From NCBI GenBank assembly GCA_031262165.1, contig JAISIF010000125.1, forward strand, positions 1 through 39,918: 39,918 nucleotides of DNA, read 5' to 3'. Shown piece by piece: positions 30,297 to 34,639 of this stretch; position 1 is the stretch's first letter, and every line of letters begins with the position of its first letter. The position numbers were made by a program, and so were the translations under genes. The notes under the pieces are model-generated. The model was given only the letters and a program-made list of their open reading frames with translations, did not search any database and was not told where the DNA came from. This stretch comes from Myxococcales bacterium (GTDB taxonomy: Bacteria; Myxococcota; Myxococcia; Myxococcales; UBA5297).

Positions 30297-30385
30297 GACG
30301 TAGGGGCACGGCATGCTGTGCCCCTACAGTTTTATTGAGGCGTCTGAATCGATTCGTAGGGGAGGCCCCCTGTGGCCGCCCTTAT
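30297..30385. repeat. Double-hairpin GTAGGGGC-family repeat upstream of rtcB
   Basis: The first hairpin, GTAGGGGCACGGCATGCTGTGCCCCTAC (in part 30299-30326), is followed by TTTTATTGAGGCGTCTGAATC, then by a second palindrome starting TCGTAGGGGAGGCC and ending GGCCGCCC. The linker is nearly the same as at 2556-2586. The repeat ends 30 bases before the rtcB start. Confidence 0.85.
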
Positions 30386-30413
30386 TTTTATAGCCATCAA
30401 AGGATATTCCCTC

Positions 30414-31676
30414 ATGCTCGAAATCACCGGAAAACATAACATCGCCAAGGTTTTCACCGATTCATTGGAGGAGCTCTCGAAAAGACAGATCGAGACGCTC
30501 TGCAATCAATCCTTCGTGGCAGGCAGCACCATTCGTCTCATGCCCGACGTCCATGCGGGCGCTGGCTGCACCATTGGGACGACCATGACCATTCGGGACA
30601 AGATCGTTCCCAATCTGGTCGGGGTCGATATTGGCTGCGGCATGGAGACGACGGTCCTCGGAGCGGATACGCGCGCTTCGAGGAAGTTCGATCCCGCGCG
30701 GCTCGACGAGATCATCCATGCGCAGATTCCCAGTGGCATGGAGGTCCGGGACACCGCGCATGAATTCATCGACCAAACTGCGCTCGATAGAATTCGCTGC
30801 CCAGCCATTCATCTCGCGCGGGCAAGGTTGAGCATTGGCACCCTCGGCGGTGGCAATCATTTCATCGAGGCGAATAGGGATGACGAAGGCAATCTGTATA
30901 TCGTCATCCATTCAGGAAGCCGTCACCTGGGCGTCGAGATCGCTGAATACTATCAGGAACAGGCATGGCGTCAGCTCAATGGAAGCCGCAAGCCAGACAT
31001 TGAAAAACAAATCAAACGATTGAAATCCGAAGGCCGCGAAAAAGAGATCGAGCGCGTCATCCAAGAGATGAAATCGCAGACGATCACGGATGTCCCCAGA
31101 GAATTGGCGTATGTCAGCGGCGAGCTATTCGACGATTACATCCATGACATGAAGATTACCCAACATTTCGCCTCGATGAATCGAAAGGCAATGATGTCCG
31201 TGATTTTAGAAGGCTTGAAAATACACGAGGACGATATTGGCGATCGCTTCTCGACCATTCACAATTACATCGACACCGAATCGATGATTTTGCGAAAAGG
31301 CGCCGTGTCCGCGCGGGCTGGCGAGAAACTGCTCATCCCCATCAATATGCGCGATGGCAGTCTCGTCTGTGAGGGATTGGGTAATCCAGATTGGAATCAT
31401 TCTGCACCACATGGCGCTGGCAGAATCATGAGTAGAAGCAGAGCCTTTTCGATTCTGAGAATGGAAGAGTATGAAAAATCAATGAAGGGCATCTATTCGA
31501 CATCGGTGAACAAAGGCACGCTCGACGAAAGCCCAATGGCATATAAGAGTATGGATGACATCGTGCGGAATATAGGGCCCACGGCGAAGATATTGAGAAT
31601 CATCAAGCCGATATACAATTACAAGGCGTCGGAGGAGAAGAAGGATAGGAAGAAGCAGAAGGCGCGTCATACCTGA
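30414..31676 (+). CDS. rtcB: RtcB-family RNA ligase
   Basis: RtcB joins RNA 3'-phosphate or 2',3'-cyclic phosphate ends to 5'-OH ends with GTP and Mn; it serves RNA repair or tRNA healing. The 420-residue product has IRLMPDVHAGAGCTIGTTM, NLVGVDIGCGMET with the metal-binding Cys, GTLGGGNHFIE, HSGSRHLG, and the guanylylated His in SAPHGAGRIMSRSRAF. All catalytic residues look intact. The ATG at 30414 has AAAGGA nine bases upstream; an upstream in-frame GTG lies inside the repeat and is rejected. GC is visibly lower than in the operon upstream, and similar repeats lie on both sides, which suggests transfer. No PrfH, RtcA or archease gene is adjacent. Confidence 0.93.
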   Translation: MLEITGKHNIAKVFTDSLEELSKRQIETLCNQSFVAGSTIRLMPDVHAGAGCTIGTTMTIRDKIVPNLVGVDIGCGMETTVLGADTRASRKFDPARLDEIIHAQIPSGMEVRDTAHEFIDQTALDRIRCPAIHLARARLSIGTLGGGNHFIEANRDDEGNLYIVIHSGSRHLGVEIAEYYQEQAWRQLNGSRKPDIEKQIKRLKSEGREKEIERVIQEMKSQTITDVPRELAYVSGELFDDYIHDMKITQHFASMNRKAMMSVILEGLKIHEDDIGDRFSTIHNYIDTESMILRKGAVSARAGEKLLIPINMRDGSLVCEGLGNPDWNHSAPHGAGRIMSRSRAFSILRMEEYEKSMKGIYSTSVNKGTLDESPMAYKSMDDIVRNIGPTAKILRIIKPIYNYKASEEKKDRKKQKARHT

Positions 31677-31804: not shown

Positions 31805-33532
31805 TCAATCTTCCGCTCCGGCCCCGATGCCCTCTTCCATCTCCTCCGCCGCCTCAACCTCCTCGCCCCTCTCCTCAGCGCTCGGGAGTTTCCGCCTCAT
31901 CACCTCCAACACCGATCCCAGCAGGCGTTCGAGGCGGGTGAGGTCGATCGGCTTGGGCAGGAAGGCGTCGGCGCCAGCGCTCAGCGCCGCGGCGACATCG
32001 CTCTGACGCCCCAGGTTGCTGATCGCGATGAGCGCGCAGTCGCGCGTGGTGGGGTGCTCTCTCAGGAGGCGGCACAAGCTCAGGCCGTCCATCCACTGGA
32101 GCACGATGTCGAACACGATGGCGGCCGGTGGTTCGCGCGCGGCGGTCTCCACGAGGCTCAGCTCGCTGTCGAAGGTGCGGACGTCGTGTCCGCGACTCGT
32201 GAGAAAGAGTGAGACGATCGAGCGCACTTCCTCGTCGTCGTCGAGCAGATAGACGCGCGGTCGCGGCAGAGGCGCGGGCAGGGCGAGGACTCGACGCGCA
32301 CTCGCACTCGCTCTCGGTCGGAACAGGCGCGCGAACGCCTCGCGCCAGGCTGCCCAGCGCAGTGCGCGGTAGGCCTTGTCCGTAGAGAGCTCGCTAAAGC
32401 CAAGGAGCGAGCCTCCTTCCTTGGTCCCGCGCGTGCCCGCTGTCGCAACGACGCTGCGCAGGCACTCGGGCGCACTCGGTCCAGCACGGCGCGCGTGCTT
32501 CAGAAAGTGGGGCTGCCGTTCCGCGTGCTGGACGAGGTCGGTCTGGAGCAGTTCGAGGCGCTCCCCGAACAGCATGCTCTCACCCATCGTGAAAAGGAGC
32601 CGCGCCGAGCGCGTGGCCGAGCACAGCGCTGGGTAGAGCCCTGGATCGAGCAGGTGCCCATGGACCGCGCTCCCGATCGTGAGCTGGCCGGGTCGGAAGA
32701 GCGTGTCGGTCGTGCCCGCACCCAATTTCACGGACAGTGGACCTGGCGCCTCGAAGCGCAGCCGACCGGGCAGCACGCCATCGCGCACGAGCCGGGCGAT
32801 GGCCTCGACCACGGCGCCCTGCTCCAGCGCCTCACTTCTGCCAATGGCGAGCACCGAGGCGCGGCCATAGCCGACCGGCGTGAACACGAGCGCCTCGATG
32901 GAGGGAAGGGGGGCGACGACGAGGCGGATCAGCTCGTCGCCATGTGGCCAGCTCACGCGCACGTGCCAGGCCTGGCGGATGGGCGGCGCGCTGTAGCGCC
33001 CAAAGAGCCACGCTTCGGCAAGCGTGCTGTCTGAACCGAACGCGCCCACGACGCACTGAAACGTCTCGGTGCGGCCCTGGGAACGAAGGCGTTGCTCGCC
33101 CAGGGGCATGCCCTCGATGGCCTCGACCTCGACCGGCTGGACGCTCGCGCCGCGCGCCACGGCAGCGTCGAGGAGCAGGCGCTTGACGAGGTTGCGGCCA
33201 GACGTTCCGGGAGTGTCGATCGACCAGAGGCCACCGCTCGGCGGTGCGAGCAGGGCCGAGTGCCCAGCGCCGTGGACGATGAGCCCGCGAATGGGAAACG
33301 GGGCGTGTTCGGAGGTGACGATGGCGCCGAGCGAGGCGAGTCGGCAGCGGGTCTTCAGATCGAGCAGGACAGGGAGGTGGCTCTTCTCCGAGCCGCCCGC
33401 GTCGTAGAGCACGACCTCGGCTTGGCGACCGTGGGCACGCATGGCCGTGAGTAGAGCCGAGGCAAAGGCAGCCCCAGATGGACCTGCGCCAACGACCGCG
33501 ATGCGTGCGCCGTCCGTCAGCCCCACTCCCAT
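31805..33532 (-). CDS. Fusion of an FAD/NAD(P)-type Rossmann oxidoreductase domain and a response-regulator receiver domain
   Basis: The 575-residue protein begins with a dinucleotide-binding fold (IAVVGAGPSGAAFASALL at 11-28, then VVLYD ending the second strand). Weak counterparts of the flavin monooxygenase/halogenase motifs follow: VVGAFGSDS where ADGxxS is usual, and TIGSAVHGHLLDPGLYPAL where VGDAAG--P--G-G is usual. The GD Asp is replaced by Ser. From about 428 to 545 it carries a receiver (REC) domain with the acidic pair in YLLDDDEEV, phospho-acceptor Asp475 in IVFDIVLQWMDG, Ser in IAISNLG and Lys527 in LPKPIDL, all intact. A phosphorylation-controlled flavoprotein or a non-catalytic cofactor sensor are both possible. 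The ATG at 33532 is where the fold begins. A long Glu-rich tail follows the REC domain. Confidence 0.82.
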   Translation of the reverse strand: MGVGLTDGARIAVVGAGPSGAAFASALLTAMRAHGRQAEVVLYDAGGSEKSHLPVLLDLKTRCRLASLGAIVTSEHAPFPIRGLIVHGAGHSALLAPPSGGLWSIDTPGTSGRNLVKRLLLDAAVARGASVQPVEVEAIEGMPLGEQRLRSQGRTETFQCVVGAFGSDSTLAEAWLFGRYSAPPIRQAWHVRVSWPHGDELIRLVVAPLPSIEALVFTPVGYGRASVLAIGRSEALEQGAVVEAIARLVRDGVLPGRLRFEAPGPLSVKLGAGTTDTLFRPGQLTIGSAVHGHLLDPGLYPALCSATRSARLLFTMGESMLFGERLELLQTDLVQHAERQPHFLKHARRAGPSAPECLRSVVATAGTRGTKEGGSLLGFSELSTDKAYRALRWAAWREAFARLFRPRASASARRVLALPAPLPRPRVYLLDDDEEVRSIVSLFLTSRGHDVRTFDSELSLVETAAREPPAAIVFDIVLQWMDGLSLCRLLREHPTTRDCALIAISNLGRQSDVAAALSAGADAFLPKPIDLTRLERLLGSVLEVMRRKLPSAEERGEEVEAAEEMEEGIGAGAED

Positions 33533-33673
33533 GGCCCGCCGCCTCCCCTCGTCTCTCACCCCATCGCCCGCACCGCCGCGATCTGCCGCTCTGCTTCGTG
33601 GAACGCGGATCGTGGTCGCGAAGATGGGCATCGCTCTGGAGTGGCTGCGCAGGCTTTTTGGGGGAGGGGAGGA

Positions 33674-33691
33674 AGGGGCGGCGTCGCCCCT
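33674..33691. repeat. GGGGCG-GCGT-CGCCCC hairpin
   Basis: A perfect six-pair G/C stem with a four-base loop lies in the divergent gap (33533-33796) upstream of the FAD/receiver gene. It resembles a bare GGGGC-type repeat core without the GTA end. Confidence 0.55.
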
Positions 33692-33796
33692 CCCGGTTCG
33701 GGGAGCCGGTGCCTAGTTTGGTGGCGTTTCCCCCTCCCCCCTCCCCATGCCCCCACGAGCTCCATGAACTCCACTAGGTCACGAGGTCCCGCGACG

Positions 33797-34639
33797 ATGA
33801 CAATGACGACGATGCCGATGAACGCCCTGGCATTCGATCTGGATGCCCGACTTCGGCTGCTCCCCTTGCTCTGCCGGGCCGCGCTGCCGACACAACCCTC
33901 GAAGGCGCTCTGCGCGCGGGCCGTCGCGCTCCATGGTCTCGCCGCCAGCGAGTGTAGGGAGCGCCTCGCCGGACTGCCCGACTTCGATCTGCCGCGGTTC
34001 GACGCGCTGCCTGCCATCGCATCGGCGCTCGAAGCGTGCGAGGCCGATCTCGACGCGCGGCATCTCGCCCTTGGCCCTGTCGTCACGCGGCTATGTGATG
34101 AGGCCGTGGCGCTGCGCCGCCAGTTCGTGCGGGAAGCCCGCTACTTCCTGCGCCGCAACCCTGGCCTGCTTCGTCAGCTCGGTGACCTGACACACGAGCG
34201 CAGCATCGAGGCGCTCACCCTCGACCTCGGCCACATCGCTCAGATGGCCACGCTTCATGAATCCGCACTGCGCCGCTCCACGATGCTCCCGACCAACCTC
34301 GCGGCCACGGCCCAGCGCTTGGCCTGCGCGCTCTGCCTTCACCTGTGCGAGGACAACAGGGCACCTGCGGTGATTCAGGAGCGGCGCAACGCGCTCTTCT
34401 GGCTGCTCTCCGACGCGTTCGATGAGTTGGAGGCGGCCCTGGCCTATCTCGATCCAGAGGAGGTCATCGAAAGCGCGCGAGGAGAAGCCGATGAATGCCC
34501 CGCCAACCCCAACCTCTTGTTCGAACACCGCGCCGCGTCCATGCCCTCACTCGAGTGGGCCATGTCACAGGCAGGCGTGAGCGATCGCGGCTGCATGAGA
34601 TGGGGCATCGCTCAAAATCTCTCCGATCAATCCAGGTAG
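33797..34639 (+). CDS. Uncharacterised helical cytoplasmic protein
   Basis: I do not recognise this 280-residue protein. It has no signal peptide or membrane segment and reads as mostly helical, rich in Leu, Ala and Arg, with several Cys (LACALCLHLCED in the middle). ERRNALFWLLSDAFDELEAA looks like an amphipathic helix pair. Codon use is strongly high-GC like the kinase and argS genes, which supports a real, long-resident gene. The ATG at 33797 has GAGG about ten bases upstream; nearby in-frame ATGs (33803, 33812, 33818) are alternatives. It is divergent from the FAD/receiver fusion, with 264 bases between, so the two may share control. Confidence 0.7.
   Translation: MTMTTMPMNALAFDLDARLRLLPLLCRAALPTQPSKALCARAVALHGLAASECRERLAGLPDFDLPRFDALPAIASALEACEADLDARHLALGPVVTRLCDEAVALRRQFVREARYFLRRNPGLLRQLGDLTHERSIEALTLDLGHIAQMATLHESALRRSTMLPTNLAATAQRLACALCLHLCEDNRAPAVIQERRNALFWLLSDAFDELEAALAYLDPEEVIESARGEADECPANPNLLFEHRAASMPSLEWAMSQAGVSDRGCMRWGIAQNLSDQSR

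What the first reader, a model, noticed from the sequence alone, without database searches (positions are those of the whole stretch)
31805..33532. FAD-type Rossmann domain fused to an intact response-regulator receiver domain
One open frame joins a dinucleotide-binding oxidoreductase-like domain (GAGPSG at about 16-21) to a receiver domain whose phosphorylation residues (acidic pair, Asp475, Ser, Lys527) all look intact. Receiver domains normally precede DNA-binding or enzymatic output domains of a few known types; a flavoprotein-like partner placed N-terminal to the receiver is unusual. The FAD motifs are degraded (GSAVHG for GDAAG, AFGSDS for ADGxxS), so it may sense or bind a cofactor, or bind another ligand, rather than catalyse. 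Two-component phosphorylation controlling a redox or lipid-modifying flavoprotein would be a new form of output.
Basis: partly seen in the sequence, partly recalled or inferred. Interest (0 to 1): 0.75.

Follow-up and report, generated by a model that had tools for sequence, protein, structure and literature searches.

The report
Flavoprotein-like response regulator, DmxB partner family
This gene joins a worn-down flavin-enzyme fold to an intact phosphorylation switch; its relatives across the myxobacteria sit in an operon with the c-di-GMP-making enzyme DmxB, which this bacterium's own family has lost, so it is a real, conserved regulator of unknown job and not a sequencing accident.

Summary
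Confirmed, with a new context. Window 31805-33532, minus strand, encodes a 575-aa protein: a flavin monooxygenase/halogenase-type fold (about residues 10-318), a variable linker, and a C-terminal receiver domain with every phosphotransfer residue intact. Colinear full-length homologues occur once per genome across Myxococcales, so the fusion is not a frameshift artefact. The FAD motifs are degraded across the family (GD-motif acid kept in 4 of 26), yet the domain stays under purifying selection (dN/dS about 0.26).

In 29 of 29 informative loci outside the window's own family, the gene lies directly downstream of a REC-GGDEF or HK-REC-GGDEF gene; in Myxococcaceae that gene is the DmxB orthologue. 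The protein therefore matches Myxococcus xanthus MXAN_3734, published as a 577-aa receiver protein with no other known domain, co-transcribed with dmxB and dispensable for development. In the window's family dmxB is missing and the gene stands alone.

Best reading: a phosphorylation-switched, probably non-catalytic flavoprotein-like effector from a c-di-GMP module. FAD binding, kinase and output are unshown.

The parts
31805..33532 (-). Whole gene, 575 aa, MXAN_3734-type response regulator
   Evidence: Open frame; colinear homologues
32579..33505 (-). Flavin monooxygenase/halogenase-type fold, about residues 10-318
   Evidence: Profile-profile match probability 97.6, E 3.4e-12, control 0.3; PDB profile hit CmlS E 1.7e-6
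33473..33490 (-). GAGPSG dinucleotide-binding loop, residues 15-20
   Evidence: G15 and G17 invariant, G20 nearly so in 26 members
32657..32674 (-). Degraded GD motif (GSAVHG), residues 287-292
   Evidence: Acid at the second position kept in only 4 of 26 members
32261..32578 (-). Variable linker, residues 319-424
   Evidence: 48% identity between same-genus copies, against 72% in the fold and 64% in the receiver
31913..32260 (-). Receiver domain, about residues 425-540
   Evidence: PF00072, 65.2 bits; modelled at pLDDT about 80
32108..32110 (-). Phospho-acceptor Asp475
   Evidence: Invariant in 26 members
31952..31954 (-). Lys527 of the receiver active site
   Evidence: Invariant in 26 members

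Best explanation
The gene is the window organism's copy of the MXAN_3734 family: a response regulator whose N-terminal half descends from a group-A flavin monooxygenase/halogenase and whose C-terminal half is a working-looking receiver. Ancestrally it is the second gene of a c-di-GMP module, behind a DmxB-type diguanylate cyclase. Most likely a histidine kinase (fused to the cyclase in some families) phosphorylates D475, and the change in the receiver alters what the flavoprotein-like domain binds: a partner protein such as the cyclase or an exopolysaccharide-pathway component, or a flavin-like or other small ligand. It would thus be a phospho-switched binding effector and not a redox enzyme. 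In the window's family the cyclase partner was lost and the regulator was kept. Shown: architecture, fold ancestry, motif erosion, conserved phosphosite, operon context, absence of the partner in this family, purifying selection. Inferred: phosphorylation itself, ligand or partner, and output.
For: Fold: hhalign 97.6% / E 3.4e-12 with control 0.3%, CmlS E 1.7e-6. Receiver residues intact in all 26 apart from a Ser/Thr swap in L020. GD acid lost in 22 of 26. DmxB-type gene directly upstream in 29 of 29 informative loci outside the family; L027 carries the published D60, R210ESD and G219GDEF of DmxB. dmxB-MXAN_3734 operon and 577-aa receiver protein. HK fused to REC-GGDEF upstream in f9 and G005. 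dN/dS about 0.26 in the fold.
Against: No partner, kinase or ligand was shown. The M. xanthus deletion had no developmental phenotype, and DmxB works without phosphorylation. The window lineage has no adjacent cyclase, so any output there must be independent of it. A few members keep near-canonical GD motifs, so FAD binding is not excluded.
Confidence: 0.5

Rival explanations
1. One reading: it still binds FAD and is a redox or modifying enzyme whose activity is switched by phosphorylation.
For: Flavoprotein fold over its whole length and a kept GxGxxG loop; f9 members keep GEAAG-like motifs and an f2 member an Asp; the window copy keeps an acid after the second strand.
Against: GD acid absent in the window copy and in 22 of 26; DG motif lacks its Asp; no substrate or pathway genes conserved nearby.
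Confidence: 0.2
2. Phosphate sink or competitor: the receiver drains phosphate from the kinase that also feeds the cyclase's receiver, and the N-terminal half only positions it.
For: Two receivers in neighbouring genes, with a kinase fused to one of them in f9 and G005.
Against: The N-terminal fold is as constrained as the receiver, and the gene survives without the cyclase in the window's family.
Confidence: 0.15
3. A relic in this lineage: the partner cyclase is gone and the gene is drifting.
For: Partner gene lost in the family; G001 and G003 of the same family show no copy; no mutant phenotype known in M. xanthus.
Against: Full-length open frame in G000 and G002, all phosphotransfer residues kept, dN/dS about 0.3.
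Confidence: 0.1

Closest known systems
MXAN_3734 of Myxococcus xanthus, downstream of dmxB (PMC4877007, PMC8844925)
   Same: Length (577 against 575 aa), C-terminal receiver, no standard N-terminal domain call; relatives of the window gene sit in exactly that position behind DmxB orthologues.
   Different: The window copy has no dmxB beside it; the MXAN_3734 sequence itself was not held, so the match is by synteny, length and DmxB landmarks.
Group-A flavin monooxygenases and flavin-dependent halogenases (PF01494, PF04820; CmlS)
   Same: Fold along residues 10-318 by profile comparison; GxGxxG loop.
   Different: GD and DG motifs degraded; a receiver is appended; no known substrate or reaction.
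PhyR of alphaproteobacteria (own knowledge; mentioned in PMC5964349)
   Same: Response regulator with the receiver at the C-terminus and a binding-type output at the N-terminus.
   Different: PhyR's output is sigma-like and acts by partner switching; here it is flavoprotein-like with no known partner.

Membership tests
Response regulator receiver (PF00072) | Score above the curated cut-off | tested here: met
   65.2 bits against 30.2
Response regulator receiver (PF00072) | Acidic pair, phospho-acceptor Asp, Ser/Thr and Lys present | tested here: met
   D431-433, D475, S505, K527; D475 and K527 invariant in 26
Response regulator receiver (PF00072) | Phosphorylated by a histidine kinase | not testable with these tools
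   Needs a phosphotransfer assay
Group-A flavin monooxygenase / halogenase superfamily | Homology over the fold | tested here: met
   hhalign 97.6%, E 3.4e-12, control 0.3%
Group-A flavin monooxygenase / halogenase superfamily | GxGxxG loop | tested here: met
   GAGPSG at 15-20
Group-A flavin monooxygenase / halogenase superfamily | GD motif with its Asp | tested here: not met
   GSAVHG in the window; acid in 4 of 26 members
Group-A flavin monooxygenase / halogenase superfamily | FAD bound and used | not testable with these tools
   Structure models too poor to judge the pocket
MXAN_3734 family (dmxB operon) | About 577 aa with a C-terminal receiver | tested here: met
   575 aa, receiver 427-535
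MXAN_3734 family (dmxB operon) | Directly downstream of dmxB | tested here: not met
   Met in 29 of 29 informative relatives outside the family, absent in the window, G002 and G004
MXAN_3734 family (dmxB operon) | Direct sequence match to MXAN_3734 itself | not tested
   No named M. xanthus sequence was held; inferred from synteny, length and DmxB landmarks

The most novel reading that the evidence does not exclude
A response-regulator class in which phosphorylation of a C-terminal receiver controls a pseudo-flavoenzyme that senses a small ligand or redox cofactor and feeds it into c-di-GMP and developmental signalling in myxobacteria, and which in one reduced-genome lineage now works without its cyclase.
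Probability: 0.25. Interest if true: 0.75.

Novelty: new variant of a known kind. Interest (0 to 1): 0.5.

Why it matters
DmxB makes the c-di-GMP rise that M. xanthus needs for fruiting bodies (PMC4877007), and its operon partner has been a receiver protein with no known output. The partner's N-terminal half now has an identity, an eroded flavin-enzyme fold, and the pair is shown to be conserved and nearly always linked. That gives direct tests: does it bind flavin, which kinase feeds it, does it touch DmxB. The lineage without dmxB is a natural experiment on what the regulator does by itself.

Tried and rejected
Frameshift fusion of two genes: rejected by colinear homologues. Ordinary NAD-Rossmann protein of the short-chain type: rejected by the control (0.3% probability). 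Structure prediction with the four clearly permitted rows: the N-terminal half of the full-length model is unusable (mean pLDDT 45, receiver about 80), and an N-terminal-only model of a Pyxidicoccus homologue is also poor (43.9). Its Foldseek hits are nearly all flavin monooxygenases and halogenases, but with TM-scores of only about 0.2-0.3, so they count as weak support. Loci from the genome search were not handed to the structure predictor because its stated rule does not name them. The N-terminal domain without a receiver was sought in the phylum sample: no free-standing one found at E up to 1e-9. Remnants of dmxB beside the window gene, G002 or G004: none convincing. Literature searches for other flavoprotein-receiver fusions gave nothing relevant in the open library; subscription papers were not searched.

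Full report
What is there. The finding lies on the minus strand: ATG at 33532, stop at 31805-31807, 575 residues. The receiver (427-535) is unambiguous (Pfam 65.2 bits). The N-terminal part falls below Pfam cut-offs in this protein, but homologues pass them (L020, NAD_binding_9, E 2.7e-8; L053, E 1.2e-5). A profile of 26 N-terminal domains matches a profile of group-A flavin monooxygenases and halogenases along 283 columns (probability 97.6, E 3.4e-12), with a short-chain dehydrogenase control at 0.3. The best solved relative by sequence profile is the halogenase CmlS (E 1.7e-6).

Not an artefact. Full-length homologues occur in many genomes of the order and one in the same genus at about 63-65% identity. 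With a profile of the N-terminal domain alone, 79 of 195 genomes sampled from the phylum match, one gene each (a few are split over contig ends), all in the same order, in families f1, f2, f3, f6 and f9, and no free-standing copy without the receiver was seen. The order is taken to be Myxococcales: named homologues are in Corallococcus sicarius and Pyxidicoccus caerfyrddinensis. The gene tree follows the families, which fits vertical descent; long branches make the deeper joins uncertain.

State of the two halves. Across 26 members the receiver keeps the acidic residues, D475 and K527, and nearly always S505 (a Thr in L020). In the N-terminal half the GxGxxG loop is kept in most, but the GD motif has lost its acid in 22 of 26; the exceptions are one f2 member (Asp) and three f9 members (GEAAG or GEIAG). 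The acid after the second strand is kept in about 10. Between the window gene and its same-genus homologue dN/dS is about 0.26 in the fold, 0.34 in the linker and 0.31 in the receiver (dS about 0.8-1.5, so rough). The fold is maintained while its cofactor motifs are not.

Context. In 29 of 29 informative loci outside the window's own family (at least 27 genomes) the gene directly upstream on the same strand is a DmxB-type cyclase: REC-GGDEF, or HK-REC-GGDEF, in those read in full. The gap is mostly 7-61 bp, with outliers of 90 and 274 bp; the start codons are my choice. One more member (G015) runs to a contig end and is uninformative. The upstream protein in L027 has Asp60, RESD at 210 and GGDEF at 219, the landmarks published for DmxB, the diguanylate cyclase needed for M. 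xanthus development (PMC4877007). [quoted passage not shown] DmxB itself works without phosphorylation (PMC8844925; PMC4877007). The MXAN_3734 sequence was not held here, so the equation rests on synteny, length and those landmarks.

The window's family is the exception. In G000, G002 and G004 no DmxB-type gene is beside the regulator, and the best matches of these three genomes to a DmxB query are about 33% identical, against 48-52% for likely orthologues in other families. In G004 the TPR gene that precedes dmxB elsewhere still precedes the regulator, with about 700 bp lacking a coding signature between them, which fits deletion of dmxB. Two other genomes of the family lack the regulator. 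Conversely G014, which I take from genome size to be an Anaeromyxobacter, has the TPR gene and a DmxB-like gene (48%) without the regulator. So the cyclase and the regulator are strongly but not absolutely linked.

How it probably works. A kinase phosphorylates D475; the receiver then changes what the flavoprotein-like domain binds. In f9 and in G005 the kinase is fused to the neighbouring cyclase, which suggests a shared phosphate source (the G005 kinase domain was read from the sequence, not scanned). I give 0.5 to a phospho-switched binding effector, 0.2 to an active flavoenzyme, 0.15 to a phosphate sink and 0.1 to a relic. Phosphorylation, cofactor binding and output were not shown.

Verdict. 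The kind is known (response regulator), with an output domain not described in the papers found for this family: a new variant. The structure models of the N-terminal half are too poor to judge the FAD pocket.

Noticed in passing
window 30372-31676 (+): An RtcB RNA ligase gene (PF01139) lies between a TPR-protein gene and the finding, convergent with it; in G002 of the same genus the same TPR gene adjoins the regulator directly without RtcB.
   Followed up: partly
L023 6292-6991: In G004 about 700 bp with no coding signature separate the TPR gene from the regulator, the place where dmxB sits elsewhere.
   Followed up: partly
L083 3340-6224: G014 keeps the TPR gene and a DmxB-like REC-GGDEF gene side by side without the flavoprotein-receiver gene.
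   Followed up: partly
L024-L029, L031, L023: A small TPR-repeat gene lies upstream of dmxB in most loci and may be a third member of the module.
   Followed up: partly
L045: A GTDB record titled 'Comamonas sp. KCTC 72670' carries this myxobacterial locus on a contig of the same length as that of G056 (family f3), so the organism name on the record looks wrong.
   Followed up: no
window 33641-34639 (+): A 332-aa open frame divergent from the finding has no Pfam match and no homologue in the fetched loci.
   Followed up: partly
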